NCBI RefSeq assembly: GCF_963662555.1
Contig: NZ_OY759719.1
Span: forward strand, 1,694,985 to 1,758,984
Source of the DNA: Thiomicrorhabdus sp.
Lineage (GTDB): Bacteria; Pseudomonadota; Gammaproteobacteria; Thiomicrospirales; Thiomicrospiraceae
Length of the DNA: 64,000 nucleotides
Reading direction: 5' to 3'
Below are positions 3,694 through 64,000 of this stretch, one piece after another. The position numbers and the translations under genes are program-made. Numbering within the stretch: position 1 is the stretch's first letter; each line of letters opens with the position of its first letter. Below the pieces are notes generated by a model. The model was not told the origin of the DNA and made no database searches. It worked only from the letters and a program-made list of their open reading frames with translations.

Positions 3694-3705
3694 ACCAGGT
3701 CTGGT
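3694..3705. repeat. Chromosomal palindrome copy, one mismatch
   Basis: Reads ACCAGGTCTGGT (one change from ACCAGGCCTGGT), flanked by ATT and AAATC, within the gene-free region. Confidence 0.85.
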
Positions 3706-4337
3706 AAATCTTGAGCTCATTTCAAAGGATTTATTTTTAAACAAGCTGAAAGGCTTTTGCATTTTTACATTCGTAAAATCATTTATATTAAAAGCAGTCT
3801 AAAAAAATCTTTCAATAAACTTTTACGGTAAATTTAACTGTAGATTTTTATCTGATATAGATAGTGAAGTCACAACGTTGCTAGATTTTATTTTTAATTC
3901 ATTTCTCTAATCATATCGATATTTCATTTTTTATTGCGTTCTTTAAATGTATTTACCCAGATAGGGTACTTATTAGAATTGATGCTTTACTATTTAATAT
4001 TCAATTTAACATAATATATATTATACGTATTTTATTAATGTTAAAAATCACGTGATACAAACTATGGATTCTCGATATCTATATGTAATTATGAGGTTTT
4101 TTAATATATTGCTTTAATAACGAAAAGTTTTGCTACATTCACTATATGTCTATATATGCTTCAAGTTATTTCAAATTTATATTGTTTAGATTGCTGGCGT
4201 GTTTGGTTTTATTTAAAGGTTTGTATATCCATGCTTTGTAAGGTAGACAGATTCTTTAAATAAATTTATAGATATGACTAGTTCTCTGTGTGATTAATTA
4301 TGGAAACTACGGTTTTTAAACCATAGATAAAAAGATA

Positions 4338-4366
4338 TAAAAAAACCCGTTAATAACGGGTTCTAT
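4338..4366 (-). terminator. Rho-independent terminator
   Basis: The perfect stem AACCCGTTA/TAACGGGTT (4344-4362) is followed on the minus strand by a run of T (A run on the plus strand). It lies just downstream of the minus-strand gene at 4410. Confidence 0.8.
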
Positions 4367-4409
4367 TTAACAATTAAAGCTTTTAAGAATATTGTTTAAA
4401 GGTATCTAT

Positions 4410-4856
4410 CTAACCTTCGTGCAAACCTAAGACAATTAAAATCATCGGAATAATTGCAATTAAGGCCAGTAAGATTGGTACCCAAGCTTTATCTTCTTTG
4501 TTTCTAAGTCCCATAAAGCCAGCAATAATGGCAACTGGAGCAGCAACCCAAGCAATTGGAGGGAATACAAAACTAAATACGATGGCCACGACCCCTGCTA
4601 CCATACCTAATGTTGCAGAATCACCTGGTTGGTAACTTTTGGTATTGCGCATATCATCAGGCTGAGTGCTTGCAGATTCTAATCGCCCCATAATGCCGTT
4701 AATGTCTGATTCAGTTAAATCTTTTTGAATAACTTCTAAGTCAGTCATTCCAAGTGTGATTTTTTTATTTCTATATAGGGCTTTAACTAAATCATCCCAA
4801 TTAGCATCTTCTGGTAGCTGATCAACAATTTCGTGAGCATCTTCTTTGATAGACAT
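4410..4856 (-). CDS. Small membrane protein of unknown function
   Basis: The 148 aa protein has a soluble N-terminal half (residues 1-75) with charged helices, followed by two hydrophobic segments near residues 83-116 and 124-145. The GMVAGVVAIVFSFVFPP...GFMGLRNKED layout resembles DUF4190-type membrane proteins. An AGAGGAA ribosome-binding site precedes the ATG. It stands alone, with its own downstream terminator, and is divergent from rpoN. No specific function is recognised. Confidence 0.75.
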   Translation of the reverse strand: MSIKEDAHEIVDQLPEDANWDDLVKALYRNKKITLGMTDLEVIQKDLTESDINGIMGRLESASTQPDDMRNTKSYQPGDSATLGMVAGVVAIVFSFVFPPIAWVAAPVAIIAGFMGLRNKEDKAWVPILLALIAIIPMILIVLGLHEG

Positions 4857-5076
4857 ATTTCTTCCTCTGAACTGATAAAAACTTATTTATGTTTTTTTAC
4901 GATTAAATACTAAGGTTTATCATAAAATTCACACATAAAAACTTACTTTAAAACAAAATTGGCATGAAAAATGCCTAAAGTGCTGTATTTACTTTACGTT
5001 TTATATTTATTTTCGATTATTATATCTATAATACTTTTGAATACTATTCTAAATTTTGTCAGGAGCTTTCTCAAAC

Positions 5077-6582
5077 ATGGCACTAATGCCCGGCTTACAG
5101 ATTAATATTGGTCAACAACTGAAACTAACCCCTCAGTTACAACAATCGATAAAGATACTACAGTATTCTGCTTTAGAAGTTCAGCAGACTATTGAAGCAA
5201 CACTTGAAACCAATTTTATGCTTGAAGTTGGAGAAGATTTAGAGCTCGAAGACGATTCAGAACAATCTCCTAACCAGGAGGCTGAACTTTCAAGTAACAA
5301 CGAAAAAAATCAAACACCTGATGATGAAACACCTCTAGATATTAATAGTTCAGACTCTATTAAGGATGACCTTCAAGCTGATTATGATTGGGAGGATGTT
5401 TATACTGATCACACCCCTTCTGTAAGCTCGCAGAGTCAAGAAGAATACGTAAGTGCCGAGACCTATACTGCGTCTGAAGAGACATTGCACGACCACTTAC
5501 ATTGGCAGTCGGATATCTACCCTTGGACTGATGAAGAGTCGGTTGTAGCTTCTTATATTATTGATGATATAAATGAAGAAGGTTATCTGTCGAGTACTCT
5601 AGAACAGCTTAATAGCTCTATTCAAGAAAATGAACCTAACTTTACAGTGACAATTGAATTCATTGAAAATGTGCTAAAAGTTATTCAGCAATTTGAGCCT
5701 ACTGGTGTAGGTGCAAGATCGGTTCAAGAAAGTCTTCTTTTGCAACTGGCAAATATGACTAAAACCCCTTATGTCATGACCGCAATGCAGTTAATAAGAG
5801 AACATTTTGATTGGCTATCTTTTCATGACTCAAAACGTATTAAAAAAATGTACGCTTTGACGGATGATGATTTAAATCAGTTATTGCGATTAGTCCAATC
5901 ATTAAACCCAAGGCCTGGTAGGGATTACTCTAGTACCCAGTCAAGTATTGTTATACCTGATTTGAGATTAAAACGTGCTAAAGATGGTTGGCTAGTTGAA
6001 TTAAATAGTAATGCATTTCCAAAGCTAACGGTCAATTCAGCCTATATCGACCTTGCTTCGAATTTAAAAAATGATGAGCAATCAAAACAAATTAAAGAGC
6101 AACTTATTGAGGCTAAAGGTTTAATTAAAAGTATTCATAGTCGTGGTGAAACTTTATTGAGAGTAGGTAAATTTATTGTTGAAAAACAAGAACGCTTTTT
6201 TGAAGAAGGTGAACATGCTATGCAGCCTCTTGTATTGCGTGAAGTTGCAGAGCATTTAGATTTACATGAATCAACAATATCACGTGCCACTAACCAAAAA
6301 TATATTCAAACACCTCGTGGTACTTTTGAACTTAAATACTTTTTCTCAACTGGTGTAAGTCAATACGGCAGTGCCGATCAATCAGCAATTGCAATAAAAG
6401 CTCATATTAAAGAGTTAATTGATGCAGAAGATCCTAAAAAGCCACTAAGTGATAGCAAGTTGATGGCCATGCTTGAGGAAAAAGAGATTGTAGTGGCTAG
6501 AAGAACTATTGCTAAGTACCGTGAAGCTCTTAAAATCCCCTCCTCTAGTGAGCGAAAAAAATATAACCAATTTAAGTTATAA
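5077..6582 (+). CDS. rpoN: RNA polymerase sigma-54 factor
   Basis: Alternative sigma factor directing RNA polymerase to -24/-12 promoters that need AAA+ activators. Region I is clear (ALMPGLQINIGQQLKLTPQLQQSIKILQ), followed by an acidic region II, the core-binding domain and the C-terminal DNA-binding domain with the RpoN box ARRTIAKYREALKIP. The ATG at 5077 is preferred over a TTG seven codons upstream because AGGAG lies at 5061-5065 and family alignments begin with the MALMPGLQ-like segment. A TATAAT occurs at 5027-5032. The neighbours are not the usual lptB/hpf/ptsN set, which is unusual for rpoN. Confidence 0.95.
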   Translation: MALMPGLQINIGQQLKLTPQLQQSIKILQYSALEVQQTIEATLETNFMLEVGEDLELEDDSEQSPNQEAELSSNNEKNQTPDDETPLDINSSDSIKDDLQADYDWEDVYTDHTPSVSSQSQEEYVSAETYTASEETLHDHLHWQSDIYPWTDEESVVASYIIDDINEEGYLSSTLEQLNSSIQENEPNFTVTIEFIENVLKVIQQFEPTGVGARSVQESLLLQLANMTKTPYVMTAMQLIREHFDWLSFHDSKRIKKMYALTDDDLNQLLRLVQSLNPRPGRDYSSTQSSIVIPDLRLKRAKDGWLVELNSNAFPKLTVNSAYIDLASNLKNDEQSKQIKEQLIEAKGLIKSIHSRGETLLRVGKFIVEKQERFFEEGEHAMQPLVLREVAEHLDLHESTISRATNQKYIQTPRGTFELKYFFSTGVSQYGSADQSAIAIKAHIKELIDAEDPKKPLSDSKLMAMLEEKEIVVARRTIAKYREALKIPSSSERKKYNQFKL

Positions 6583-6597
6583 ATGATATTTAAACCT

Positions 6598-6628
6598 CTT
6601 AAAACCATGAATAACATATGGTTTTAAG
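6598..6628. terminator. Hairpin downstream of rpoN
   Basis: An 11-base stem, CTTAAAACCAT paired with ATGGTTTTAAG, with a 9-base loop, lies 15 bases after the rpoN stop. There is no strong T run, so it may be a weak terminator or an RNA-stabilising hairpin. Confidence 0.45.
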
Positions 6629-6768
6629 GGTAAATAAGCACTTTTTCCTTATTAATCACTCTTTTTGCCTATTCATTCGCTCTCAGGATGCTTTCTATAA
6701 TAGTAATTTATTAATTTCGCTTTTATAATGACTCAAATAAATAAAATAGAAATATTGGGTATATTATT

Positions 6769-7698: not shown

Positions 7699-7783
7699 CT
7701 CTTTTAATGATGTCTTGATACTAAATCACAAGATCTTTATAAAGAGTGATGAGTATTCAAATTCTTATATTAGGAAATAATTT

Positions 7784-8491: not shown

Positions 8492-8503
8492 AGTTTAGTT
8501 TCA

Positions 8504-10060: not shown

Positions 10061-10191
10061 CCTTTTTTATACTAGCTTTTAAAGGCAAGGTTAAATTAAA
10101 TACAAATAATTAGATTAACGCCTTTACAAGTATTGCTCCCCAACTTACTACTTCTTCCCGTAGAAGTTTATCTAGAAAAATCATAAGCAAT

Positions 10192-10221: not shown

Positions 10222-10241
10222 TAAACCGGTAAACCAAACAA

Positions 10242-11513
10242 TTATTGAACTCTACCAACCAAATCGTTTACTTGACGAATCCATGGATTAATACCGTATT
10301 TTGATTTAATCTCTTTAGCTAACTTATCAGCCTCTGCTCGAGATGCAAGTGATCCTGTTACCACAATGTAATTAGTAGATTTATTACGCGTTTGCGGTAG
10401 AACTTTGGCGTCATTCAATTCTCTGCTAGAGATCATTTTTTGTGCTGCTTTTTGAGTAGGCATGCTCGCTAACTGCAAAATATAGTTTTGTCTAGATTGC
10501 CCTAATAGCCAGCTTATATCTGGGGAAGCATTTGCAATCGGTGCATTTGGCAATTTAGGAGATGTTGGTACAGAAACCTGTTCAGTCAATTTTAAAGTTG
10601 GCTCTTTTACAGTTGGTGTTTTAACAGTTTCAACCGTTGGTGTACTAACTTCCATATCTGCTTCATCAGCCATAGTTGATTTTGAACTTACCAGGCCTGG
10701 TAAATTTTTAATTTGTTTTCCTTGGTTTAAATGCTGAAGAATTAACTCAAGTTTACGATCTATTTTTGTTTCAAGTTTCTGCGTATAAGCATCTAATTTC
10801 TGATCTAAAACGGCCTCAGTAACCAAATTATTTGATTTTTCTGGTGCAGGAACCGTTGAAGGCGTTTTAGAAGCATTTTCTGCATCCAACATTGTTGCAG
10901 AACCCGCTTGTTTTGGCTCTTCGTTTGCAGTGTTAGTAACGACTAAAGTATCTGTAGCTTGATCAGTATTTGCAGAAATGGCTACTGTCCCACCCTGCAT
11001 ACTTTTAATAATAGCTTTAAGTTCTTTTACCTCTCCTTGCAAAGCCAAAACTTTTGACTCAAGTTCAGTAAACAATTCTGTTTTTCCACCAGTGGTTACA
11101 GATTGTTGTAAAGAGTTGAAATCAGTTTGCAGTTCATTAATGTGTTCAAAATTTTGATTTTGTGAAGCGAGTACTTTTTCTTGCTCTTTTTGAAAGCTAC
11201 TGTAAGCAATATATAAAACGCCTAAAATAGTCAGCAAGAGTGACAGCATAATAATAACGCCAAAAAATGATGTTTTATTGCTGGTTGTTGATGTGGTTAA
11301 TAGTTTATTGCTGTAACTCGATTTTGGGTTCGGTTGTTGTGAAGTATGTTTAGGGTTCTCAGGCATAACTTCCTCTGCGGCATTTAACCAATCATTAAGT
11401 GATGGGGATTCATTATTATTTGAATTTTGCGATGTTAGTTTGCCAGCTTTAGATTCAATCTCTTCTAAGATCTTGGCTCTTTGTTCTTCAAGTTCTGAAA
11501 TAGTAAGTGACAT
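10242..11513 (-). CDS. SPOR-domain membrane protein (DamX-like)
   Basis: A 423 aa single-pass protein with a soluble N-terminus (about 1-82, with an SLNDWLNAAEEVMPE motif), a membrane helix near 83-105 (FFGVIIMLSLLLTILGVLYI), a coiled-coil region (about 110-175), a low-complexity Thr/Pro-rich linker, and a C-terminal SPOR domain (about 340-420: NYILQLASMPTQKAAQKMI ... ADKLAKEIKSKYGINPWIRQV). SPOR domains bind denuded septal peptidoglycan, so a cell-division role is likely. The linker contains a copy of the chromosomal palindrome encoding LPGLV. Confidence 0.8.
   Translation of the reverse strand: MSLTISELEEQRAKILEEIESKAGKLTSQNSNNNESPSLNDWLNAAEEVMPENPKHTSQQPNPKSSYSNKLLTTSTTSNKTSFFGVIIMLSLLLTILGVLYIAYSSFQKEQEKVLASQNQNFEHINELQTDFNSLQQSVTTGGKTELFTELESKVLALQGEVKELKAIIKSMQGGTVAISANTDQATDTLVVTNTANEEPKQAGSATMLDAENASKTPSTVPAPEKSNNLVTEAVLDQKLDAYTQKLETKIDRKLELILQHLNQGKQIKNLPGLVSSKSTMADEADMEVSTPTVETVKTPTVKEPTLKLTEQVSVPTSPKLPNAPIANASPDISWLLGQSRQNYILQLASMPTQKAAQKMISSRELNDAKVLPQTRNKSTNYIVVTGSLASRAEADKLAKEIKSKYGINPWIRQVNDLVGRVQ
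10690..10701. repeat. Chromosomal palindrome copy, exact
   Basis: ACCAGGCCTGGT inside the SPOR-domain gene, read on the minus strand as codons for PGLV; the flanks extend it to TTACCAGGCCTGGTAA. Confidence 0.95.
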
Positions 11514-11839: not shown

Positions 11840-12235
11840 CTACTTAATCTCGCCATCAACATATTGCCAATGACCTAAAGTATCTCTTATAAAGTAACTT
11901 TTTTCATGTAAGTAGCCATTAGAACCTTCTTGTTGATAATAAGCAGTAAATGTCACCCACCCTTCAGAATCTTTTTTACGTCCCTTTTTTCGGCCGTTAA
12001 TGGTTAATTTCGTCCAATGTAAATTTGGGGTAAATTCTAAATTACCAGGCCTGGTAGATTCATACCAAGTATTTAAAAGGTAGTCTTTTAAATGCATTTC
12101 AAAAGCAACAAAACGGGAACGCATTAATTCCTCAGCTGTTTGAGGATAGAGACCACCTTTGTGAAAAGGTTCACAACACTCTGCATACAATTTAGTTGAG
12201 CCACATAAGCAAAGATTATTTATATTGGATTGCAT
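11840..12235 (-). CDS. ychJ: YchJ-like SEC-C motif protein
   Basis: A 131 aa protein of the UPF0225/YchJ family. The N-terminal zinc-binding SEC-C motif is CLCGSTKLYAECCEPFH, followed by PQTAEELMRSRFVAFEMHLKDYLLNTW and VTFTAYYQQEG, with an NTF2-like core. The function is unknown; SEC-C motifs often mediate protein contacts. The gene contains an exact copy of the chromosomal palindrome, read here in a different frame (encoding TRPGN). Confidence 0.88.
   Translation of the reverse strand: MQSNINNLCLCGSTKLYAECCEPFHKGGLYPQTAEELMRSRFVAFEMHLKDYLLNTWYESTRPGNLEFTPNLHWTKLTINGRKKGRKKDSEGWVTFTAYYQQEGSNGYLHEKSYFIRDTLGHWQYVDGEIK
12044..12055. repeat. Chromosomal palindrome copy, exact
   Basis: ACCAGGCCTGGT inside ychJ; in the minus-strand frame it codes TRPG, a different frame from most other copies. 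Confidence 0.95.
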
Positions 12236-12255
12236 ATCTATTTGAATATTAATGA

Positions 12256-13656: not shown

Positions 13657-13666
13657 CAACGTAACA

Positions 13667-14143: not shown

Positions 14144-14760
14144 TTACAGTGAGTTTAATTTTTGAAAAAACAACCACTGCAAAGCCATATAGGTGGTAGC
14201 CACGTTAAAACGCCCTTCTAATAACTGCTTTTTGGCGTCTTCAAAAGATAAAATCACCACTCGTATGTCTTCATTTTCTGTAGCAAGTCCAGCATGTGTA
14301 TTAACCTTTTTACACTCCACTTCAGAGGCATAAAGGTGCAAAATTTCATCGCAGGCTCCAGGGCTTGGATAGAACTGGCTAATAAACTCCGGATCAGTAA
14401 TGTCAGCACCAGTTTCTTCTTTTACTTCTCTTATACAGGCTTCTTTAGGGCTTTCGCCTAAATCAATCATTCCAGCTACAGGCTCAATTAACCAGGCCTG
14501 GTTAATATCTTTTGTGGCAAAGGCATTTTCTATGGCACCTGCTCTGCACTGTTCAACTAAAACAACTTTTTCTTCAGTTAAATCATAAAGCAAAACAACC
14601 ACGGCTTGCCCCCTACAAAACACCTCACGCTTTACCAATGAGCTTTGGCCACCCTGAAATAGAGAGTGAGTGAATTGAAGGTTTTTAAGTGTAAAGTAAC
14701 CTTTAAAAACAGTCTTATTATCTTGAATGGTAAGTGATTTTTGGTTTTTATTAGGCATTG
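14144..14760 (-). CDS. nudF: ADP-ribose pyrophosphatase (Nudix hydrolase)
   Basis: A Nudix enzyme hydrolysing ADP-ribose to AMP and ribose-5-phosphate. The Nudix box is GMIDLGESPKEACIREVKEE followed by TGA, fitting G-x5-E-x7-REUXEEXGU. The upstream GYFTLKNLQFTHSLF and downstream QFYPSPGACDEILHLYAS agree with the NudF/YqiE subgroup. The ATG at 14760 (MPNKNQ) is preferred; a TTG six codons upstream would overlap alr. It contains an exact palindrome copy coding NQAWL, the third reading frame used by this repeat. Confidence 0.92.
14491..14502. repeat. Chromosomal palindrome copy, exact
   Basis: ACCAGGCCTGGT within nudF, in a 20-base perfect palindrome from 14487 to 14506 (ATTAACC...GGTTAAT); it codes NQAWL on the minus strand. 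Confidence 0.95.
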
Positions 14761-19701: not shown

Positions 19702-19713
19702 ACCAGGCCTGGA
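19702..19713. repeat. Chromosomal palindrome copy, one mismatch
   Basis: ACCAGGCCTGGA, just beyond the 3' end of pyrF; one of two copies 30 bases apart. Confidence 0.85.
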
Positions 19714-19731: not shown

Positions 19732-19743
19732 ACCAGGCTTGGT
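19732..19743. repeat. Chromosomal palindrome copy, one mismatch
   Basis: ACCAGGCTTGGT, 11 bases downstream of the pyrF stop; the second of a close pair. Confidence 0.85.
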
Positions 19744-23233: not shown

Positions 23234-23902
23234 CTACTTCATAATTCCTTTATCCCACAACAAAGATTCTGCTTTTTTACATACTTCTTGTATATCTAAT
23301 TCAGAAGTATCGATCACAATTGCGTCATCCGCAGGTCTGAGTGGAGCGGTCTTACGACCCGTATCTCGCTCATCCCTTTCTTTGATGTCTTGAGTTATCT
23401 GAGCTATGTTAGCATCAACTCCTTGATTTTTCAACTGTTTAACACGTCTTTCTGCTCTTACCTCAGCAGAAGCTGTTAAATAGAGTTTTACAGGTGAATT
23501 TGGGAAAACAACGGTACCCATATCTCTACCATCTGCAATTAAACCAGGAGACTGTGCAAAGTCTTTTTGACGTTGTAACAATGCCGCTCTAACTTCAGGA
23601 ATAACGGCAACGGTTGAAGCAACACCTGCGACTTCTTCTGTTCTTACTTTAGAAGTAACATCTACTCCATCATATAAAATACTTGTCGCTTTAAATTCAA
23701 CTGGAAGTTTTTCAGCTAAATTTACCAGGCCTGGTATATCGTCAAGAGCCAAATTGTTTTTAACGGCACCAAAAGCTAAAGCACGGTAAATAGCTCCACT
23801 ATCTAGAAGGTGGAATCCCGTTTTGCATGTTAAATATTGAGCCAATGTGCCTTTACCTACGCCACTTGGACCATCAATAGTAATCACAGGTGTATTAGAC
23901 AT
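23234..23902 (-). CDS. cmk: Cytidylate kinase
   Basis: Phosphorylates CMP and dCMP. The N-terminal P-loop is ITIDGPSGVGKGTLAQYL, with LLDSGAIYRALAF, LIADGRDMGTVVFPN and RDERDTGRKTAPL blocks. The 222 aa length is normal. It begins directly at the aroA stop (no gap), indicating tight translational coupling. An exact palindrome copy encodes IPGLVNL. Confidence 0.96.
   Translation of the reverse strand: MSNTPVITIDGPSGVGKGTLAQYLTCKTGFHLLDSGAIYRALAFGAVKNNLALDDIPGLVNLAEKLPVEFKATSILYDGVDVTSKVRTEEVAGVASTVAVIPEVRAALLQRQKDFAQSPGLIADGRDMGTVVFPNSPVKLYLTASAEVRAERRVKQLKNQGVDANIAQITQDIKERDERDTGRKTAPLRPADDAIVIDTSELDIQEVCKKAESLLWDKGIMK
23724..23735. repeat. Chromosomal palindrome copy, exact
   Basis: ACCAGGCCTGGT within cmk, minus-strand frame coding PGLV; flank TTT on the left side. 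Confidence 0.95.
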
Positions 23903-25278: not shown

Positions 25279-26154
25279 TTAATTGGTCTTGTTAACTATA
25301 TGTTTGTCTCGGGCCTTTTTAGCTTCGCTAAACAAGGTATAAAGAGCATCGGCATCTTTAGACTCTACCAGGCCTGCTAATTCTTCAATTGCCAAACCAT
25401 AATTTTTTAACCATTTAACAATGGCTTCCGAATTATAAATGGCAATATCACGCCACATTACCGCATCACTTGATGCAATACGGGTAAAGTCTCTAAAACC
25501 ACCTGCGGTGTATTGGAACACATCACCTAACTCTTCATGCTCATTAAGCATATCAACTAATGAAAATGCGAGTAAATGTGGTAGATGACTGGTCGCCGCA
25601 AAAATCTCATCGTGTTGCTGAGCGGTCATTATTTCAACTTTAGCACCTAAAGTTTGCCATAACTCTTGTACGGTTTTTACGGCCTGTTGAGAAGTATTTG
25701 GTGTTGGTGTAAGAATCACGCGGTGGTCTATATACAGCTCTTCATCTGCAGCCGTTACCCCACTTTTTTCTTTCCCGGCAATTGGATGACCCGGTACAAA
25801 ATTTACAGGTAACTGCCCAAAAACGTCTTGAGCCGATAGGATGACACTGCTTTTAGCACTGCCACCATCGGTAATAATGGTATTTTCAGCTAAGAAGGGT
25901 TTCATTAACTCTAAAGAACTTTGCATTGCCCCTAAAGGCACGGCAAGAAATATGAGATCACTATCGGTTACGGCTTCTTCCATATCTAAAGAAAAAGAGT
26001 CAATAACACCCAATTCAATGGCTGTTTTTAAATTATCTGGATTTTGGCCAAAACCCATGACTTCATCTACCAGTCCTGCTTTTTTTAAACCTTTAGCAAA
26101 TGAACCGCCAATTAGGCCAACACCAATAATGGTTATTTTTTTAAATGTTTTCAA
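25279..26154 (-). CDS. tyrA: Prephenate dehydrogenase
   Basis: Oxidative decarboxylation of prephenate to 4-hydroxyphenylpyruvate in tyrosine synthesis. NAD-binding ITIIGVGLIGGSFAKGLKKAGL starts near residue 7; the GHPIAGKEKSGV segment and ATSHLPHLLAFSLV are catalytic-domain blocks. The 291 aa length fits the single-domain form with no fused AroA. It sits between hisC and aroA. The C-terminal part contains a palindrome copy with one mismatch (coding AGLV). Confidence 0.95.
   Translation of the reverse strand: MKTFKKITIIGVGLIGGSFAKGLKKAGLVDEVMGFGQNPDNLKTAIELGVIDSFSLDMEEAVTDSDLIFLAVPLGAMQSSLELMKPFLAENTIITDGGSAKSSVILSAQDVFGQLPVNFVPGHPIAGKEKSGVTAADEELYIDHRVILTPTPNTSQQAVKTVQELWQTLGAKVEIMTAQQHDEIFAATSHLPHLLAFSLVDMLNEHEELGDVFQYTAGGFRDFTRIASSDAVMWRDIAIYNSEAIVKWLKNYGLAIEELAGLVESKDADALYTLFSEAKKARDKHIVNKTN
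25367..25378. repeat. Chromosomal palindrome copy, one mismatch
   Basis: ACCAGGCCTGCT within tyrA, minus-strand frame coding AGLV. Confidence 0.75.
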
Positions 26155-28459: not shown

Positions 28460-29554
28460 TTACGCGTTTTCTGTTGCAAATTGTTTCATAAAAGCAATCA
28501 AAGCATCTATACCTTCTTCTGGCATTGCATTATAAATACTTGCTCTCATACCACCAAATGCTTTATGCCCTTTTAAACTTAACAGCCCTGCTGCTTTAGA
28601 CTGTTCTAGAAACAAACTATCCAATTCAGTGTTATTTAAGTTAAAAGTCACATTCATCCAAGAACGTTCAGAGACTTTAATTTTATTGGTGTAAAAGCCT
28701 GAAGCGTCAATATAATCATATAGTTTTTGTGCTTTACGTTCATTGATTTGCGCAATTGCGTGTACACCGCCAGTCTCTTTAAGCCATTCAAAGACCAGGC
28801 CTGCTAAATACCAAGCATAGGTTGCTGGTGTATTAAACATAGAATCATTGTTCGCATAAACATCCCAGTTCATAAGGGTTGGCGTATCACTGCGAGCATT
28901 ACCTAATAAATCTTCACGTACAATCACAATAGCTAAACCTGCCGGACCAATATTTTTTTGTGCTCCTGCATAAATCATTCCGTACTTGCTGACGTCTATT
29001 TCACGGCACATAATATTTGATGACATATCTGCAACAACAGGTTTACCTTGTGCAAAGATCGTTTCTAAATGTTCATCTTTAAGCTCTAAACCAGTGATGG
29101 TCTCATTGACACAAATATGAATATATTTGGCATCAGCAGAAAACTTCCATTCACTCTGTGCAGGGACTTCGGTCGGATTAGCTTCTTGAGCACTGGCCAC
29201 CACATTAACATTTGTATAACGAGAAGCTTCTTTTATCGCTTTGGTTGACCAAACACCCGTGTTTAGATAGTCAACGGTGTCATTTTGCTCAGCTAAATTC
29301 ATTGGAATCGCCGCAAATTGTAACGAGGCTCCACCATGAGTAAAGATAACTTTATAGTTATCAGGAATCTGCATTACATCACGTAAATCTGCTTCCATTT
29401 TATGAGCAACAGCCATGTACTCTTTACTACGATGGCTCATTTCCATGACAGACATGCCAGTAGATTGCCAATCTAAAAATTCAGCCGCTGCTTTTCTCAT
29501 TACCGCTTCAGGTAACATTGCTGGGCCAGCACTAAAGTTAAATGCTCTTGACAT
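28460..29554 (-). CDS. serC: Phosphoserine aminotransferase
   Basis: A 364 aa PLP enzyme of serine and pyridoxal phosphate synthesis. MSRAFNFSAGPAMLPEAVMRKAA, MEMSHRSKEYM, FTHGGASLQFAAIPMNL and YAGAQKNIGPAGLAIVIV (PLP lysine in AQKN) are family blocks. It sits between gyrA and pheA as in many Gammaproteobacteria. The ATG at 29554 has a TAAGGA ribosome-binding site. Confidence 0.96.
   Translation of the reverse strand: MSRAFNFSAGPAMLPEAVMRKAAAEFLDWQSTGMSVMEMSHRSKEYMAVAHKMEADLRDVMQIPDNYKVIFTHGGASLQFAAIPMNLAEQNDTVDYLNTGVWSTKAIKEASRYTNVNVVASAQEANPTEVPAQSEWKFSADAKYIHICVNETITGLELKDEHLETIFAQGKPVVADMSSNIMCREIDVSKYGMIYAGAQKNIGPAGLAIVIVREDLLGNARSDTPTLMNWDVYANNDSMFNTPATYAWYLAGLVFEWLKETGGVHAIAQINERKAQKLYDYIDASGFYTNKIKVSERSWMNVTFNLNNTELDSLFLEQSKAAGLLSLKGHKAFGGMRASIYNAMPEEGIDALIAFMKQFATENA
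28794..28805. repeat. Chromosomal palindrome copy, one mismatch
   Basis: ACCAGGCCTGCT within serC; codes AGLV on the minus strand. Confidence 0.75.
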
Positions 29555-29574: not shown

Positions 29575-29586
29575 ACCAGGCCTGGT
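29575..29586. repeat. Chromosomal palindrome copy, exact
   Basis: ACCAGGCCTGGT in the gyrA-serC gap, 21 bases upstream of the serC start. Confidence 0.95.
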
Positions 29587-34818: not shown

Positions 34819-34830
34819 ACCAGGCCTGGT
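34819..34830. repeat. Chromosomal palindrome copy, exact
   Basis: ACCAGGCCTGGT 12 bases downstream of the SDR stop, flanked by AATTT and AATTATT. Confidence 0.95.
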
Positions 34831-36485: not shown

Positions 36486-36497
36486 ACCAGGCCTGGT
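36486..36497. repeat. Chromosomal palindrome copy, exact, longest form
   Basis: The core ACCAGGCCTGGT is flanked by AAATTT on both sides in inverted form, making a perfect 24-base palindrome from 36480 to 36503. Confidence 0.97.
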
Positions 36498-45264: not shown

Positions 45265-45276
45265 ACCAGGCCTGGT
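45265..45276. repeat. Chromosomal palindrome copy, exact
   Basis: ACCAGGCCTGGT between flanks ATTT and AATT, 7 bases downstream of the NERD gene stop. It is the last copy before the accessory island; none follows for 9.5 kb. Confidence 0.95.
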
Positions 45277-54784: not shown

Positions 54785-54796
54785 ACCAGGCCTGGT
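54785..54796. repeat. Chromosomal palindrome copy, exact
   Basis: ACCAGGCCTGGT, 28 bases downstream of yejF, followed by AAATTA. First copy after the accessory island. Confidence 0.95.
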
Positions 54797-57992: not shown

Positions 57993-58966
57993 GACAGCTT
58001 CACTCTTGGATCAAAATAGGTATAAGAGATATCGGTAAGGATTAAACCGATGATATAAAGTACAGAACCTAAAAATACCATAGCTTTAACAATACCAAAA
58101 TCTTGCGATTGAATCGCATCAATGGTGTAGCTTCCCAGGCCTGGTATGGCAAAGAAGGATTCCATAATTAAGCTACCCATAAACAGAGTTGGAATAACAA
58201 CGACAACCCCCGTTAAAATCGGTAACAAGCCATTTTGTAACACATGTCCAAATAAGACTTTAATCTCTGAAAGCCCTTTTGCTCTGGCAGTACGAACATA
58301 ATCTTTGGTAATTTCTTCTAAGAAAATACTGCGATACCATCTTATACCTGAGCCAATCCCTGCAAATACACCAATAAATACCGGCAAAATAATAAATTTA
58401 AGGCCTTCTAGTCCGTCGGCATAACCTGATATGGGTACCCAATGCCAGGTTTTACTAAACAAGACCTGGCCTGCAATAATATAAAACAGTCCAGAAATAG
58501 ACATAATCCCAACCGCAACTGCCATAGTGACGCTATCCAGTGTAGAGCCTCTAAATAAGACAATCAGTAAAGCAATCGCAATATTGGTAACCAATCCAAT
58601 AATAAACGTAGGCAAGGCAATAGCCAGACTTGGCCACATTCTTTCATAAATATCTGCCGAAATTTGACGGCCTGAATCGGACTGCCCAAAATCAAAACTA
58701 AATAACTTTGCAGATTCTTGCACAAATAAGGTGTCGGTAACCGTTTTTAAGCCGTTTTGGTCTGCATTTACAAACAACGGTTTGTCATAACCGTGACTGA
58801 TTTTCCAGGCCTGTATCATTTCTGGCGTAGTTTGTTTTGCTCCAAGCTGAGCACGAGCCATATCATCAGGCGTGTTTACCATAAAAAACAACGCAAACGT
58901 AATCAGGTTAACACCTAATAAAATCGGTACTGCAAACAGTAAACGTCTAATAATATAGGCAAACAT
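57989..58966 (-). CDS. yejB: Peptide ABC transporter permease (YejB-like)
   Basis: A 325 aa OppB-type permease: MFAYIIRRLLFAVPILLGVNLITF at the start, EEITKDYVRTARAKGLSEIKV (EAA loop) and SLIMESFFAIPGLGSYTIDA. It shares 1 base with yejA and overlaps yejE. The palindrome copy with one mismatch encodes IPGLG. Confidence 0.92.
   Translation of the reverse strand: MFAYIIRRLLFAVPILLGVNLITFALFFMVNTPDDMARAQLGAKQTTPEMIQAWKISHGYDKPLFVNADQNGLKTVTDTLFVQESAKLFSFDFGQSDSGRQISADIYERMWPSLAIALPTFIIGLVTNIAIALLIVLFRGSTLDSVTMAVAVGIMSISGLFYIIAGQVLFSKTWHWVPISGYADGLEGLKFIILPVFIGVFAGIGSGIRWYRSIFLEEITKDYVRTARAKGLSEIKVLFGHVLQNGLLPILTGVVVVIPTLFMGSLIMESFFAIPGLGSYTIDAIQSQDFGIVKAMVFLGSVLYIIGLILTDISYTYFDPRVKLS
58134..58145. 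repeat. Chromosomal palindrome copy, one mismatch
   Basis: CCCAGGCCTGGT within yejB at a conserved IPGLG motif; this one may simply reflect the codons of that motif. Confidence 0.6.
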
Positions 58967-61200
58967 TAGCTTTCACCCTTTTCTGTTTTTACTTTAGTTT
59001 CTGTTTTTGCACTCATTACAGAACTTTGGCGTTTTTTATAGGCCTGGGTTAACGGCCAAACAGACAGCAATAAAACTAAAACCACTAAAATTAAAGGCCA
59101 AACGATGGGTTTATTCCACTCTTGTTGTTTGTTATAGCGATCTTGCACATCAATACGTTTGTATTTAGTGGTGTTATTAGCTAAAGCATTAGGGTAAACA
59201 TTTTTTAACCAGCTGTGATACAAAGCCAATGATTTTGGATTAAAACCCCAAATCCACGGAGCATCTTTTTGGGCAATTTTGACCATTTTTTGAATAATGG
59301 CTAACCGTTCAGGATTATTAGGCATGGTTTTCATTTTTTTGAACAAACGGTTAAATTCAGGGTTATCGTAATTGGCACTGTTAATACCTGAACCGTTTGT
59401 ATTGATTATGGCATTGCCGCCAAAGAGTAAAAATAAAAAGTTTTCTGGATCAGGGTAATCAGCGTTCCAACCCCAAGAGAACATCTGTGCCTTAGCGTGT
59501 CTAACCTTGTCTTGAAAACGATTGTAATCGGTTGCACGAATAATTAAGTTAATCCCTAACTTGGCAAACTGTTTACGATACCAATTTAGTTCAGACTGAC
59601 TATCTGGACCTGTTGCAGCGGTATCATAATAGAGTGAAAGAGCTTCGCCATCTGGTTTACGGCCATTTGGGTAGCCCGCTTCTGCTAAGAGCTTTTTAGC
59701 GTATTCGATAGACTTGCGTTTGAGTTGACCTTTATCTTGATTGTAAATATAAGAATTTACAGCTTGTTTACCCGTAGCATGACCAAATATTCCTGGCGGA
59801 ATAGGACCTTGAGCCACCACTCCGCGACCATTTAAAAAGATTGAAATATACTCTTCAAAATTAACCGCAATACTAATCGCCTGCCTCAGTTTTTGTTGTT
59901 TTAAAGAGTATCCCCCAATAACTGGGTCTGCCATATTAAAACCAAAATAATAAATAGTGGGCTGTATCTGACTTAAAAACTTAATACCACGCTTTTTCAT
60001 CGCTGGCGTTAAGTTCATATTACCAGAGCCAGAAATAGATACAGCCTGATCAAAACTATCAGAGCTTACACCTGAAGCATCATAGTAACCCTGTAAAAAT
60101 TTATTCCATAGAGGCACGCTCTCTTTTTCAAGTGTAAATACCACTTGTTTAATAAACGGTAGGCGTTTACCTGCATCGTTTAATAATGTTGGATCAGCAT
60201 CTTCTGATAAGCCAGAACTAGGGTAATAAGCCTTGTGATAAGTGTCATTAGCAACTAAACGCATAACTCGGTTTGGATTATTTTCTGCTAAATAATAAGG
60301 ACCTGTTCCAACAGGTGAAGTATCTAGAGTGATATTGTTTTTTACCAGGCCTGGTTGTTTATAAAAGCGATCTGCCTCCCAAGGAATTGGGGCAAAAAAG
60401 TTCATCGTTAACCAATATAAAAATTGCGGATATTGTCCGTTTATTTTTATTTTAAAATGTTTATTATCAACAATTTGCACACCACTTATTGAAAACTTAT
60501 TTAAGTCATAATAAGTGTCTTTACTCTGTGCACCCTGCTCAGTCAGTTGCTTGGCAAAATCTTCTGTGACTTTTTTTGAATAGTCTCCTAAGCCAACAAT
60601 ATAAGGCAGCATAGAATCTAAAATAGGCGAATGATTTTGACGAAGAGCCATTCTTTTAATGGCATATACATAATCACTTGCTAACAACTCTCTTGTAGCT
60701 TGATGAGAAAAGTCAGACACGCTGTGAATAGAACTTAGCTGTTCAGGTGTTAAGTTATCGTACAGAAATTGGCCAGATTCATCTTTAGCAAATGCCGGAT
60801 GTTTATGAAACTGAATACCGTCTTTTAGTTCAAAAGTATATTCCGTAAACTGAATTGATTTACTTTTTGCATCAACCACCCGGCCTGCTGAATTTAAATA
60901 CTCAATCTTTGGCATTTGAGTGAGCGTTAATGGCTCAACAGTATAGGGACGTTTTAAATAGTGATATTGTAATGGTGGTTCATATATCTGCGACAAAATA
61001 GACCACTCATTTGAATTATAAGAAACAACGGGGTCTAAATGTTTTGGTGGGGAGCTAAAAGAACTAAATAACGTTTGTTGTTTGACTTGTTGATCAGTAT
61101 AAGGCGAGTTCCAATTATTTGCTTTAGCCTGCCAAGAGATAAAAAGTATTCCTAACAGAAAAAGAAGCTTAATCGTTTTAATAGACTGACCGTTTAGCAT
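58966..61200 (-). CDS. yejA: Extracellular peptide-binding protein (YejA-like) with C-terminal membrane anchor
   Basis: A 744 aa solute-binding protein (SBP family 5). The signal peptide is near residues 8-28 (IKTIKLLFLLGILFISWQAKA), with LDPVVSYNSNEWSILSQIYEPPLQ, VGTGPYYLAENNP and QMFSWGWNADYPDPENFLFLLFG blocks of the YejA/MppA group. An unusual hydrophobic segment near the C-terminus (about 701-722, IVWPLILVVLVLLLSVWPL) followed by basic residues suggests membrane anchoring. It is about 140 aa longer than E. coli YejA. First gene of the yejABEF-type cluster. Confidence 0.9.
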   Translation of the reverse strand: MLNGQSIKTIKLLFLLGILFISWQAKANNWNSPYTDQQVKQQTLFSSFSSPPKHLDPVVSYNSNEWSILSQIYEPPLQYHYLKRPYTVEPLTLTQMPKIEYLNSAGRVVDAKSKSIQFTEYTFELKDGIQFHKHPAFAKDESGQFLYDNLTPEQLSSIHSVSDFSHQATRELLASDYVYAIKRMALRQNHSPILDSMLPYIVGLGDYSKKVTEDFAKQLTEQGAQSKDTYYDLNKFSISGVQIVDNKHFKIKINGQYPQFLYWLTMNFFAPIPWEADRFYKQPGLVKNNITLDTSPVGTGPYYLAENNPNRVMRLVANDTYHKAYYPSSGLSEDADPTLLNDAGKRLPFIKQVVFTLEKESVPLWNKFLQGYYDASGVSSDSFDQAVSISGSGNMNLTPAMKKRGIKFLSQIQPTIYYFGFNMADPVIGGYSLKQQKLRQAISIAVNFEEYISIFLNGRGVVAQGPIPPGIFGHATGKQAVNSYIYNQDKGQLKRKSIEYAKKLLAEAGYPNGRKPDGEALSLYYDTAATGPDSQSELNWYRKQFAKLGINLIIRATDYNRFQDKVRHAKAQMFSWGWNADYPDPENFLFLLFGGNAIINTNGSGINSANYDNPEFNRLFKKMKTMPNNPERLAIIQKMVKIAQKDAPWIWGFNPKSLALYHSWLKNVYPNALANNTTKYKRIDVQDRYNKQQEWNKPIVWPLILVVLVLLLSVWPLTQAYKKRQSSVMSAKTETKVKTEKGES
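60344..60355. repeat. Chromosomal palindrome copy, exact
   Basis: ACCAGGCCTGGT within yejA, minus-strand frame coding QPGLV. Confidence 0.95.
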
Positions 61201-61271: not shown

Positions 61272-61283
61272 ACCAGGCCTGGT
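61272..61283. repeat. Chromosomal palindrome copy, exact
   Basis: ACCAGGCCTGGT in the divergent yejA-fabI region, followed by AAATTA, 72 bases upstream of yejA. Confidence 0.95.
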
Positions 61284-61481
61284 AAATTACAGCAGTTTAT
61301 TTTACTAACTTAACAAGAATAAATTTGATACTGATTTTAGTAACTTCAAGCATTATAACCAATAATTTAGCGTTATAATGCGTATAAATTAATGGATTGC
61401 CATCTTAAACTGCCCTCTCTATTTATAAGAGCCTTTTAAAATGAAAATCAGCCACTCATAAATCAAATATTGGAGAACAAT

Positions 61482-62261
61482 ATGGGATTCCTTTCAGGAA
61501 AAAAAGCCTTAATTATTGGTGTTGCAAATAATAAATCTATCGCTTACGGAATTGCAAAACAAATGCATGAACAAGGAGCAGAAATTGCCCTAACTTATCA
61601 AAATGAAAAGTTAAAGGGTCGTGTAGAAAAAATTGCTGATGAACTTGGCTCTTCAATTGTTTTACCTTTAGATGTTGCTAGTGATGCTGAAATTGATGCT
61701 ACTTTTGCCGAATTGGCAAAGCAATGGACTGATGGTTTAGATATTCTTGTTCACTCAGTTGCTTTTGCCCCACGTGAAGAACTTGAAGGCCGTATGATTG
61801 ACGCTTCAACACGTACAGGTTTTAGCATTGCTCACGACATCAGTGCATACAGCTTAACGGCTTGTACTAAAGCGGCTCATGAAATGTTAAAAGCCAAAAA
61901 TGGTTCGGTTATGACGGTTTCTTATTTAGGTGCCGAACGTGCAGTGCCAAATTACAATGTAATGGGAATTGCAAAAGCGTCATTAGAAGCAACGGTTCGT
62001 TATTTAGCGGCAGACTTAGGACAAGAAGGAATTCGTGTTAATGCGGTTTCTGCAGGCCCTATTCGTACATTGGCTGCTGCGGGTATTAAAGACTTTAGAT
62101 CTATGCTAGACAAAGCGGCTCAATCTACCCCACTTCGCCGTAATGTCACGATTGAAGAAGTCGGTAACACAGCGGCATTCTTATGTTCTGACTTAGCATC
62201 TGGAATTACAGGTGAAATCACTTATGTTGATGGTGGGTACAACATTACTGCTTCAACCTAG
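61482..62261 (+). CDS. fabI: Enoyl-[acyl-carrier-protein] reductase FabI
   Basis: A 259 aa NADH-dependent reductase for the last step of fatty-acid elongation. [25 protein letters not shown] is the NADH-binding start, with [15 protein letters not shown] and the catalytic Y-x6-K in [13 protein letters not shown]. The start at 61482 has TTGGAGAAC upstream; a TTG four codons earlier overlaps the ribosome-binding site. It is transcribed divergently from yejA. Confidence 0.96.
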
Positions 62262-62302: not shown

Positions 62303-62314
62303 ACCAGGCCTGGT
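62303..62314. repeat. Chromosomal palindrome copy, exact
   Basis: ACCAGGCCTGGT, 42 bases downstream of fabI, directly ahead of a terminator hairpin. Confidence 0.95.
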
Positions 62315-62494: not shown

Positions 62495-62571
62495 TGGCGG
62501 AGCGGACGGGATTCGAACCCGCGACCCCCTGCGTGACAGGCAGGTATTCTAACCAGCTGAACTACCGCTCC
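62495..62571 (-). tRNA. tRNA-Asp (GTC), copy 1
   Basis: A 77-base cloverleaf with GGAGCGG acceptor, anticodon GTC in CCTGTCACGC, T-loop GGTTCGAACCC and encoded CCA. Identical to copy 2. Confidence 0.96.
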
Positions 62572-62579
62572 TAATTGTA

Positions 62580-62655
62580 TGGTGGGTGATACTGGGCTCG
62601 AACCAGTGACCCTCGCCTTGTAAGGGCGATGCTCTCCCAACTGAGCTAATCACCC
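62580..62655 (-). tRNA. tRNA-Val (TAC), copy 1
   Basis: A 76-base cloverleaf with GGGTGAT acceptor, anticodon TAC in CCTTACAAG, T-loop GGTTCGAGCCC and encoded CCA. It precedes tRNA-Asp by 8 bases. Confidence 0.96.
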
Positions 62656-62737
62656 AGGATAGACAAAAAAGTTTTACATTCAAAATTTGAATAACTTTTC
62701 TGTTTTGTATTACTGCAAACTCCTGAAGATTTGCAAT

Positions 62738-62764
62738 AAAAAAGCTAGTTATAAACTAGCTTTT
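62738..62764 (-). terminator. Terminator after the second tRNA unit
   Basis: AAAAGCTAGTT/AACTAGCTTTT perfect stem with a short loop and T run on the minus strand, between the two tRNA pairs, so each pair can be a separate transcript. Confidence 0.85.
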
Positions 62765-62769
62765 AAATA

Positions 62770-62846
62770 TGGCGGAGCGGACGGGATTCGAACCCGCGAC
62801 CCCCTGCGTGACAGGCAGGTATTCTAACCAGCTGAACTACCGCTCC
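62770..62846 (-). tRNA. tRNA-Asp (GTC), copy 2
   Basis: Same 77-base sequence as copy 1, one base after tRNA-Val copy 2 in the transcript. Confidence 0.96.
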
Positions 62847-62847
62847 G

Positions 62848-62923
62848 TGGTGGGTGATACTGGGCTCGAACCAGTGACCCTCGCCTTGTAAGGGCGATGC
62901 TCTCCCAACTGAGCTAATCACCC
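62848..62923 (-). tRNA. tRNA-Val (TAC), copy 2
   Basis: Same 76-base sequence as copy 1, first gene of the upstream unit. Confidence 0.96.
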
Positions 62924-63060
62924 AATTAAACTTGCTCTACATGGCTTGTGGCCTGTGTTGCTGTGCTTAATTGATGTGGCGTATTATAGAGTTCTGGGAG
63001 AGCTTGTCAATCAAATTTAAATGTTTTTTTACATTTTTTTGATAGCCAATTTGTAAGTTA

Positions 63061-63333
63061 TTAATTAACCGCTTCTTTTAGTGCTTTACCAGCAGTAAAC
63101 TTAGGAACTTTAGCAGCTGGAATTTGCATTTCAGCACCAGTTTGTGGGTTACGACCAGTACGTGCAGAACGCTCACCTACTTTAAAAGTACCAAAACCGA
63201 TAATAGCAACAGAATCACCTGAGCTCATTGCTTTAGTAATAGAAGCTACTGTTGCATCTAATGCTTTAGCTGCATCTGCTTTTGTTAAACCAGCTTCTTC
63301 TGCGATTGCACTTACTAATTCAGATTTATTCAT
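63061..63333 (-). CDS. hupB: DNA-binding protein HU-beta
   Basis: A 90 aa nucleoid protein: [50 protein letters not shown] and [19 protein letters not shown]. The start at 63333 has GGAGA upstream; an ATG four codons earlier lies over that site. It follows lon, the standard gammaproteobacterial order. Confidence 0.96.
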
Positions 63334-63441
63334 TTTTTTCTCCATGAGTTTTTAATGTATTTTTTATCCACCACCTTTGGCTCATGCATTTATAGCAATC
63401 ATAACCAAATGGTGTCAAGTAAAAAAAGCTATTTTCACTAA

Positions 63442-64000
63442 TTAATGTCGATTTGAAGCCTTTACAGCGGTTTTTTGGGCCTTGTCATCAGTATAAGTAA
63501 TGGCCTCAGAAGCTTCACTTAATGGCTTAGGCTTATTAATTAATGCCAAATCTAACACTTCATCTACCCATCTAACCGGATGAATATCGAGTTTATTTTT
63601 AACTTCATCTGGCACATCTGCCAAATCTCTAACATTGTCATGTGGAATTAAAACGGTTTTAATTCCACCACGAAGAGCGGCAAGAAGTTTCTCTTTTAGC
63701 CCTCCGATCGGCAAAACCTCACCTCTTAGGGTGATTTCACCAGTCATGGCAACATCAGCTCTAACAGGTATTTTAGTTAAAACTGATGTAATTGCTGTAC
63801 AAATAGCAATACCAGCACTTGGACCATCTTTTTTGATAGCCCCTTCAGGAAAGTGTAAATGCAGGTCGTTTGTTTCATAAAAGTCATCGGGTAGCCCTAA
63901 TGCCTCTGAACGACTACGTATTACACTCATAGCGGCTTGTACTGATTCTTGCATAACGCTACCTAACTGACCAGTGCTAGACAGTTTTCCTTTACCAGGC
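63442..64000 (-). CDS. lon: Lon protease, C-terminal part (cut by the window edge)
   Basis: The proteolytic domain of ATP-dependent Lon; the coding frame continues to the window end ([23 protein letters not shown]), so the 5' part is outside. The catalytic serine is in [14 protein letters not shown] and the lysine in [15 protein letters not shown]. The C-terminal tail ([20 protein letters not shown]) is poorly conserved. About 185 of the usual 780-810 residues are present. Confidence 0.96.
63994..64000. repeat. Chromosomal palindrome copy, cut by the window edge
   Basis: The last bases TTTACCAGGC match the left arm of the palindrome, inside lon; the right arm is outside the window. Confidence 0.6.

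What the first reader, a model, noticed from the sequence alone, without database searches (positions are those of the whole stretch)
3694..64000. A highly iterated 12-base palindrome, ACCAGGCCTGGT, across the chromosome segment
Seen directly: 12 exact copies (10690, 12044, 14491, 23724, 29575, 34819, 36486, 45265, 54785, 60344, 61272, 62303), six with one mismatch (3694, 19702, 19732, 25367, 28794, 58134) and one cut at the window end. A given 12-mer is expected about 0.004 times in 64 kb of random sequence. Most copies extend to TTTACCAGGCCTGGTAAA. They lie both between genes and inside genes. This resembles cyanobacterial HIP1 in behaviour but is a different sequence, and it contains a StuI/HaeIII-type centre. 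Possible roles: binding site of a nucleoid or segregation protein, methylation target, repair or uptake signal.
Basis: partly seen in the sequence, partly recalled or inferred. Interest (0 to 1): 0.88.

Follow-up and report, generated by a model that had tools for sequence, protein, structure and literature searches.

The report
Palindromic DNA-uptake tags of sulfur bacteria
A 12-letter DNA palindrome found 488 times in this relative of the sulfur bacterium Thiomicrorhabdus, and spelled differently in some related species, is likely a self-recognition tag for taking up DNA from kin, which would make these the third bacterial family known to use such tags; uptake itself is untested.

Summary
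In detail: 12 exact and 6 one-mismatch copies in the window, 488 exact copies genome-wide, the reversed control 0. The motif extends weakly to a 22-bp palindrome, aatTTACCAGGCCTGGTAAatt, and is even along the chromosome. In a 464-kb sample, 54 of 85 copies lie in the ~16% of DNA outside ORFs. In 10 of 10 coding site columns examined it arose by substitution. At the few orthologous places I could align between close species it is kept exactly while flanks diverge.

The decisive new fact is dialects. Eleven of the 35 relatives with few or no copies carry other spellings: ACCGGCCGGT (1025 copies in one genome), TCTRCCAGGTTGGG (302 and 351), CCAGGCTGGG, ACAGGCCGGG, CGCCAGGGGTGG, AACAGGCCTGTT. Several are not palindromic, carry an A-tract on one side, and occur as inverted pairs. 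One plasmid-like conjugative contig has 5 copies where 27 are expected.

This is the signature of DNA uptake sequences (DUS/USS), described as known only in Neisseriaceae and Pasteurellaceae. I predict a third, independent system in the Thiomicrorhabdus/Hydrogenovibrio family. Uptake and receptor are unproven. The main rival is a HIP1-like palindrome serving a chromosomal DNA-binding or methylating protein.

The parts
3694..3705 (.). one-mismatch copy, outside ORFs of 120 aa or more
10690..10701 (.). exact copy inside ORF 10242-11513 (SPOR domain protein)
12044..12055 (.). exact copy inside ORF 11840-12235
14491..14502 (.). exact copy inside ORF 14144-14776 (NUDIX)
19702..19713 (.). one-mismatch copy; first of a pair; the aligned place in G032 is an exact copy
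19732..19743 (.). one-mismatch copy; second of the pair, 30 bp on; the aligned place in G032 is an exact copy
23724..23735 (.). exact copy inside cmk (cytidylate kinase); the same ungapped column carries a site in 6 of 20 relatives, 5 of them the full 12-mer
25367..25378 (.). one-mismatch copy inside ORF 25279-26154 (prephenate dehydrogenase, tyrA-like)
28794..28805 (.). one-mismatch copy inside ORF 28460-29554 (class-V aminotransferase, serC-like)
29575..29586 (.). exact copy between gyrA and the serC-like gene; exact in G032 at the same place
34819..34830 (.). exact copy just after ORF 34091-34807; exact in G032 at the same place
36486..36497 (.). exact copy between ORFs; RNA hairpin -9.1 kcal/mol
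45265..45276 (.). exact copy between ORFs; RNA hairpin -5.7 kcal/mol
54785..54796 (.). exact copy between ORFs, about 30 bp past the stop of ORF 54825-56450
58134..58145 (.). one-mismatch copy inside ORF 57989-58966 (BPD_transp_1 permease)
60344..60355 (.). exact copy inside ORF 58966-61200 (SBP_bac_5)
61272..61283 (.). exact copy between divergent ORFs
62303..62314 (.). exact copy between ORFs, about 40 bp after ORF 61470-62261
63994..64000 (.). copy cut by the window end (ACCAGGC); its completion outside the window was not looked at
   Evidence: last 60 bases of the window

Best explanation
ACCAGGCCTGGT, present 488 times in this genome, is likely a DNA uptake sequence: a self-DNA tag that a type IV pilus protein would bind so that a competent cell would preferentially import DNA of its own kind through ComEC. 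Shown: a huge excess over expectation; an AT-flanked palindrome; excess between genes; origin by substitution at the coding places examined; exact retention at the few orthologous places aligned between close species; clade-specific spellings that replace each other, some non-palindromic with a one-sided A-tract; inverted pairs that fold as hairpins in two of those spellings; scarcity on one plasmid-like conjugative contig; ComEC and type IV prepilins encoded in the genome. Inferred: that biased uptake followed by homologous recombination spreads and repairs the tags (molecular drive), that changes of receptor specificity cause the dialect switches, and that a palindromic tag is two overlapping half-sites readable from either end. 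The receptor is not identified; a minor pilin would be the candidate by analogy with ComP and the predicted ComN.
For: Abundance: 488 copies, reversed control 0; 85 exact against 40 one-mismatch copies in 464 kb. Dialects: of 62 genomes of the family, 27 have 84-718 copies of ACCAGGCCTGGT, 5 have 6-38 and 30 have 0-3. Six of those 30 carry another spelling: ACCGGCCGGT 1025 copies in G027 (reversed control 1) against 0-15 in the other 61 (reversed control 0-19, so background); TCTRCCAGGTTGGG 302 in G008 and 351 in G013, 4 in G007, 1 in G023, 0 in the other 58; AAAATCTRCCAGGCTGGG in G007, AAAATCGCCAGGGGTGG in G014, AAAAACTCAACAGGCCGGGT in G023, these three seen in stretches only. AACAGGCCTGTT is raised in G047, G048, G034, G035, G024 (23-114) and G042 (13), at most 5 in the other 56. 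The A-tract ends 5 bases before CAGG in spellings A, D, E and e, and 4 before in F. Orthologous sites: G000 to G032, 5 of 5 aligned sites exact with flanks 70-81% identical, chance about 1e-7 (85 of 91 sites had no held ortholog); G032 to G000 5 of 7 exact, two at 11 of 12; G026/G033 3 of 3; G008 to G007 2 of 3 aligned sites are sites in the other's spelling, one substitution away; none is missing through a gap. Coding sites: 10 of 10 site columns in seven genes of 21 genomes are ungapped. Intergenic: 54 of 85 against ~16% of DNA, p 8e-23; the same excess in seven further sets of other dialects or genomes. Inverted pairs in G008, G013, G014 and one in G023; one pair each of G008, G013 and G014 folds at -26 to -38 kcal/mol. 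Plasmid-like contig: 5 copies against 27.4 expected, p 2e-7, with TraG_N, TraH, TraF. Spacing exponential, KS p 0.65. ComEC in 37 of 38 genomes with a dialect against 19 of 24 without one found, Fisher p 0.028. Like features are reported for DUS/USS: inverted-repeat terminators, dialects following phylogeny, ~97% conservation against ~85% around, majority intergenic, absence from recently acquired genes (PMC12616744 introduction; PMC3630211 passages; PMC2397512 passages).
Against: No uptake experiment. No report of natural transformation in these genera was seen, but two of the searches showed only part of their hits (15 of 134, 10 of 398); one search found no paper with both 'Thiomicrospira' and 'uptake sequence'. 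The commonest spelling is a perfect palindrome, whereas the USS types and DUS (recalled) are not. No receptor found: the lone pilin of G000 has close orthologs (57% identity or more) in only 9 other genomes, including motif-free G030; GspH (PF12019) rings in only 3 of 62. ComEC is kept in G025, G029, G030, G031, G043 and G051, where no dialect was found, so competence genes do not require the tag; the ComEC association is confounded by incomplete drafts. The inner core is not invariant: CAGG in six spellings, CCGG in G027. The loose C spelling is only 24% intergenic (12 of 50, against 9% of DNA) and sits on two separate branches. Over longer distances sites turn over: in the gyrA-serC spacer 5 of 38 genomes have a site. 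Foreign-DNA depletion rests on one contig.
Confidence: 0.66

Rival explanations
1. A HIP1-like highly iterated palindrome kept by an intracellular process: an orphan DNA methyltransferase, methyl-directed repair, or a Chi-like recombination role acting on its core.
For: Palindromy of the commonest spelling, abundance, substitution origin. HIPs too have derivatives and replacements among related cyanobacteria (PMC4390886 passages).
Against: The spellings CCAGGTTGGG, CCAGGCTGGG, GCCAGGGGTGG and ACAGGCCGGG are not palindromes, three of them lack GGCC, and they carry a one-sided A-tract. A palindromic methyltransferase site does not predict these, nor inverted pairs. Methyltransferase content was not surveyed, so this rival is weakened, not excluded.
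Confidence: 0.15
2. Binding site of a chromosome-organising protein (ParB/Noc/SlmA/MatP-like) whose specificity drifted between clades.
For: Perfect no-spacer palindromes with AT ends resemble sites of homodimeric proteins (recalled); even density along the chromosome.
Against: About 180 sites per Mb, no origin-terminus gradient, non-palindromic dialects, no strand polarity in the one tested.
Confidence: 0.12
3. A transcription-termination or mRNA 3'-end element.
For: Intergenic excess; hairpins, strong for the three paired sites folded.
Against: 31 of 85 sampled copies lie inside ORFs. Three single palindromic copies fold weakly (-5.7 to -9.1 kcal/mol). The convergent-gene excess is not significant (14 of 50, p 0.08). 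Sequence identity, not only stem pairing, is kept at aligned sites.
Confidence: 0.04
4. A mobile palindromic repeat (REP or RPE type) spread by transposition.
For: Dispersed copies, patchy species distribution.
Against: No shared flanks by eye; 10 of 10 coding site columns ungapped; no aligned orthologous site is missing through a gap.
Confidence: 0.02

Closest known systems
USS of Pasteurellaceae (Hin type AAGTGCGGT, Apl type ACAAGCGGT)
   Same: Many copies, clade-specific types, AT-rich flanking tracts (PMC12616744 introduction; PMC1626085 passages); more conserved than their flanks (PMC2397512 passages).
   Different: Unrelated sequence; here the A-tract lies close to the core instead of about two helical turns away, and the commonest spelling is a perfect palindrome. 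Uptake bias is shown for USS, not here.
DUS of Neisseriaceae (eight dialects, core CTG, receptor ComP)
   Same: Dialects that follow phylogeny and differ by few bases (PMC3630211 passages); inverted pairs as terminators, mostly intergenic, absent from recently acquired genes (PMC2397512 passages); atypical distribution in mobile elements (PMC7371117 abstract).
   Different: Different bacterial class and sequence; receptor known there and not here. CAG (=CTG) does occur in six of the seven spellings here, possibly by chance.
HIP1 of cyanobacteria (GCGATCGC)
   Same: Highly iterated palindrome with variants, replacements and losses among relatives (PMC4390886 passages).
   Different: HIP1 has associated methyltransferases; here non-palindromic spellings, A-tracts and inverted pairs occur.

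Membership tests
DNA uptake sequences (DUS/USS) | 9-12 nt motif at hundreds to thousands of copies, far above expectation | tested here: met
   488 copies, control 0; 85 against at most 0.21 expected by 3rd- or 4th-order Markov models in 464 kb
DNA uptake sequences (DUS/USS) | clade-specific dialects consistent with phylogeny | tested here: met
   Seven spellings; mapped on a 39-genome, 7-protein tree (2 of 41 genomes dropped for lack of data; some nodes weakly supported); one loose spelling sits on two branches
DNA uptake sequences (DUS/USS) | invariant inner core | tested here: inconclusive
   CAGG shared by six spellings, CCGG in the G027 spelling
DNA uptake sequences (DUS/USS) | close inverted pairs acting as terminators | tested here: inconclusive
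   Pairs in G008, G013, G014, G023 and strong hairpins in the three folded; termination itself not testable; the A spelling is itself a palindrome
DNA uptake sequences (DUS/USS) | more conserved than flanks, arising by substitution | tested here: met
   few aligned sites
DNA uptake sequences (DUS/USS) | scarce in foreign DNA | tested here: met
   One contig with conjugation genes only: 5 against 27.4. A 25-kb motif-free island-like stretch is within chance and not counted
DNA uptake sequences (DUS/USS) | competence machinery encoded | tested here: met
   ComEC in 56 of 62 genomes, type IV prepilins in 15 of 15 examined; DprA, PilQ, PilT not searched
DNA uptake sequences (DUS/USS) | sequence-specific receptor (minor pilin) | tested here: inconclusive
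DNA uptake sequences (DUS/USS) | biased uptake of motif-bearing DNA | not testable with these tools
   needs competent cells
HIP1-like palindromes | the iterated element is palindromic | tested here: not met
   Met in G000 and most motif-bearing genomes; not met in the D, E, e and F spellings, so not met family-wide
HIP1-like palindromes | associated methyltransferase | not tested
   no methyltransferase survey was made
KOPS/Chi-type polar motifs | strand bias along the replichore | tested here: not met
   42 plus and 53 minus interspersed in G008
matS/SlmA/parS-type sites | concentration or absence near origin or terminus | tested here: not met
REP/RPE mobile repeats | insertion at otherwise intact loci | tested here: not met

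The most novel reading that the evidence does not exclude
A third, independently evolved DNA uptake-sequence system, outside Neisseriaceae and Pasteurellaceae, in free-living sulfur bacteria. Its commonest tag is a perfect palindrome read from either end, and in at least five lineages the receptor switched specificity and the genome was respelled site by site, giving a natural series from palindromic to one-sided tags.
Probability: 0.6. Interest if true: 0.9.

Novelty: new variant of a known kind. Interest (0 to 1): 0.82.

Why it matters
Uptake sequences are described as known in only two bacterial families (PMC12616744). A third lineage with seven spellings, including palindromic ones and forms one base apart in near neighbours, would let receptor-tag coevolution, molecular drive and genetic isolation by dialect be tested directly. 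It would also predict natural competence in these chemoautotrophs and give a practical tag for transforming them.

Tried and rejected
Strand polarity (KOPS/Chi): the listing seemed to show one strand only over long runs in G008 and G013, a complete listing of one variant in G008, showed this to be an artefact of how places are listed. GGGNAGGG is nearly absent from the G000 sample (2 plus, 3 minus).

Mobile repeat: rejected by ungapped orthologs. Methylation core GGCC: not shared by all dialects. Island test by motif gaps: the longest of 99 gaps (25 kb) holds an integrase and SIR2/HD-CE proteins, but with exponential gaps of mean 5.7 kb about one gap that long is expected, so it is not counted. 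Phage carriage: a 16-mer form is in only 4 viral contigs, one site each, not followed. Receptor search: GspH in 3 of 62; the lone pilin has close orthologs in 10 of 62 genomes, itself included; the prepilins of the operon match only general N-terminal pilin models. An enriched-word search in 18 further genomes found no dialect, but several stretches were short (G037 and G045 about 7 kb, G019 9.7 kb; G002 and G017 first gave only N and were fetched again). Six genomes (G001, G003, G016, G018, G020, G040) were not sampled.

Literature: the letters of the motif gave 0 papers, and 'Thiomicrospira' with 'uptake sequence' 0 papers. Mixed searches showed 15 of 43, 15 of 134, 10 of 10 and 12 of 71 hits; none listed was such a report by title. 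The held library is open-access only, without preprints. PMC12616744 was seen as abstract, introduction and passages; the other papers as passages or abstract.


Full report
OBSERVATION. The finding is correct at every coordinate: 12 exact and 6 one-mismatch copies, and a truncated one at the window end. The window is bases 1694985-1758984 of a single 2,696,250-bp contig that holds 488 exact copies; read backwards the pattern occurs 0 times. In a sample of 464 kb (20 evenly spaced stretches plus the window) I count 85 exact, 40 one-mismatch, 49 two-mismatch and 126 three-mismatch copies; Markov models of order 3 and 4 expect 0.05 and 0.21 exact copies. Of the 40 one-mismatch copies, 28 differ at the two outermost positions of a half-site. 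The flanks add a weaker symmetric consensus, aatTTACCAGGCCTGGTAAatt.

WHERE IT LIES. Copies are spread evenly: 99 gaps in the first 563 kb fit an exponential (KS p 0.65), and counts per stretch have variance/mean 0.79 and do not follow distance from the skew-inferred origin (p 0.33). With simple ORF calls, 54 of 85 copies are outside ORFs, which make up about 84% of the sample. Among 50 intergenic copies with both neighbours, 5 are between divergent genes (fewer than by length, p 0.03) and 14 between convergent genes (not significantly more, p 0.08). The 31 copies in ORFs use all three frames (15, 8, 8). The intergenic excess recurs in other genomes and spellings: G021 12 of 23 sites (8% of DNA intergenic), G027 7 of 19 (7%), G023 4 of 13 (8%), G008 11 of 14 (11%), G013 7 of 14 (15%), G014 5 of 5 (7%), and weakest in spelling C, 12 of 50 (9%).

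HOW IT ARISES. In seven genes (cmk to gyrA) of 21 genomes, 10 of 10 columns where some genome has a site are ungapped: the site comes by substitution. Where held orthologous DNA could be aligned, the site is kept exactly in 5 of 5 cases from this genome to G032, although flanks are only 70-81% identical (about 1e-7 by chance); in the other direction 5 of 7 are exact and the other two have 11 of 12. G026 and G033 share 3 of 3. Most sites had no held ortholog (85 of 91 for G000 to G032), so these are small numbers. At greater distance sites turn over: the cmk column has a site in 6 of 20 relatives, the gyrA-serC spacer in 5 of 38 genomes, G000 included.

DIALECTS. The motif is patchy in the family: of 62 genomes 27 have 84-718 copies, 5 have 6-38 and 30 have 0-3 (one search showed that the order holds the same 62). 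Stretches of genomes poor in it revealed other spellings: B ACCGGCCGGT in G027; C nnCAGGCCTGnn (AACAGGCCTGTT and relatives) in G024, G047, G048, G034, G042; D AAAAACTCAACAGGCCGGGT in G023; E AAAATCTRCCAGGTTGGG in G008 and G013; e AAAATCTRCCAGGCTGGG in G007; F AAAATCGCCAGGGGTGG in G014. Whole-genome counts: B 1025 in G027 (reversed control 1), 0-15 elsewhere (reversed control 0-19); TCTRCCAGGTTGGG 302 in G008, 351 in G013, 4 in G007, 1 in G023, 0 in the other 58; AACAGGCCTGTT 23-114 in five genomes (one of them, G035, mainly spelling A), 13 in G042, at most 5 in the rest. The D, e and F spellings were counted in stretches only (28 in 80 kb, 20 in 146 kb, 6 in 54 kb). Eighteen further genomes sampled showed no such word, some from short samples, and six were not sampled. 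On a FastTree of 39 genomes rooted on G017, A occurs on several deep branches, B, D and F in one genome each, E/e in one clade, C in two places; some nodes are weakly supported.

The non-palindromic spellings D and E line up with A on CAGG, with the A-tract ending at the same offset: AAATTTACCAGGCCTGG (A), AAATCTRCCAGGTTGGG (E), AAACTCAACAGGCCGGG (D); in F the tract is one base closer. At two orthologous places G007 and G008 have sites that differ by the one base that separates their dialects; a third G008 site has no counterpart in G007. So some places are kept while the spelling changes.

PAIRS AND FOREIGN DNA. In G008 the E motif lies on both strands (42 and 53 for the TCTACC form), with inverted pairs about 30 bp apart; one pair each of G008, G013 and G014 (listed) folds into a hairpin of -25.8, -29.5 and -37.5 kcal/mol. 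DUS pairs are known as terminators (PMC2397512 passages). Three single A palindromes fold weakly. A 96.8-kb contig of the two-contig genome G021 encodes TraG, TraH, TraF and a TraG-like ATPase (8 of its proteins from one stretch were scanned) and holds 5 copies against 27.4 expected (p 2e-7). Whether it is circular was not checked. DUS are absent from recently acquired genes (PMC2397512) and atypically distributed in mobile elements (PMC7371117 abstract).

MACHINERY. ComEC is found in 56 of 62 genomes: 37 of 38 with a dialect, 19 of 24 without one found (Fisher p 0.028, confounded by drafts). G000 encodes ComEC beside LpxK and several type IV prepilin clusters. One operon (G000:1031500-1041000) has four prepilins, two of them 477 and 495 aa, with a response regulator and a histidine kinase; prepilin clusters judged similar by eye were seen in the 12 other genomes fetched for this, not all with the two-component genes. 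I could not name the receptor.

READING. Abundance, dialects that follow the tree, AT flanks, intergenic excess, site conservation beyond flanks, inverted pairs, and scarcity on a conjugative contig together match the description of DUS and USS (PMC12616744 introduction; PMC3630211, PMC2397512 and PMC1626085 passages). An 18-base form scanned over a collection of 84,980 species genomes was found in 37 stretches, 33 of them in Hydrogenovibrio, Thiomicrospira and Thiomicrorhabdus records and four single hits elsewhere; that scan may omit near relatives of the window. I therefore predict a third, separately evolved uptake-sequence system. In the sequence features tested it behaves like DUS/USS, apart from its palindromic spelling and the lack of a fully invariant core; membership by function is untested. 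The palindrome is the best argument for the HIP1-like rival, which I weigh at 0.15.

Noticed in passing
window 1-16000 (G000:1694985-1710985): GC skew turns from positive to negative near the window start and from negative to positive near 0.3-0.4 Mb, so the window may contain the replication terminus.
   Followed up: partly
window 62495-62923: tRNA-Asp/tRNA-Val pair present twice in tandem.
   Followed up: no
L188:3808-5241 (G000:1035307-1036740): A 477-aa type IV prepilin whose C-terminal part matches the repeat of a solved antifreeze protein (3p4g, E 5.7e-15).
   Followed up: no
L230 (G000:52808-72807): The longest motif-free gap of the first 563 kb holds an integrase next to cytochrome bd genes, then a SIR2_2 protein and an HD-CE ATPase, perhaps a defence island.
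   Followed up: partly
L077 (G007:1-20000): A 28-copy repeat with words such as CAGACCTAGCCG and ACCTAGCCGCGG, CRISPR-like by its copy number only; it hid the G007 dialect at first.
   Followed up: no
L114:8003-8255 (G031): Tandem 18-bp repeat, 14 exact cores.
   Followed up: no
L202:13876-14296 (G038): Five copies of a word at exact 105-bp spacing.
   Followed up: no
all dialects: CAG, the reverse complement of the Neisseriaceae DUS core CTG, is in six of seven spellings; may be chance.
   Followed up: no
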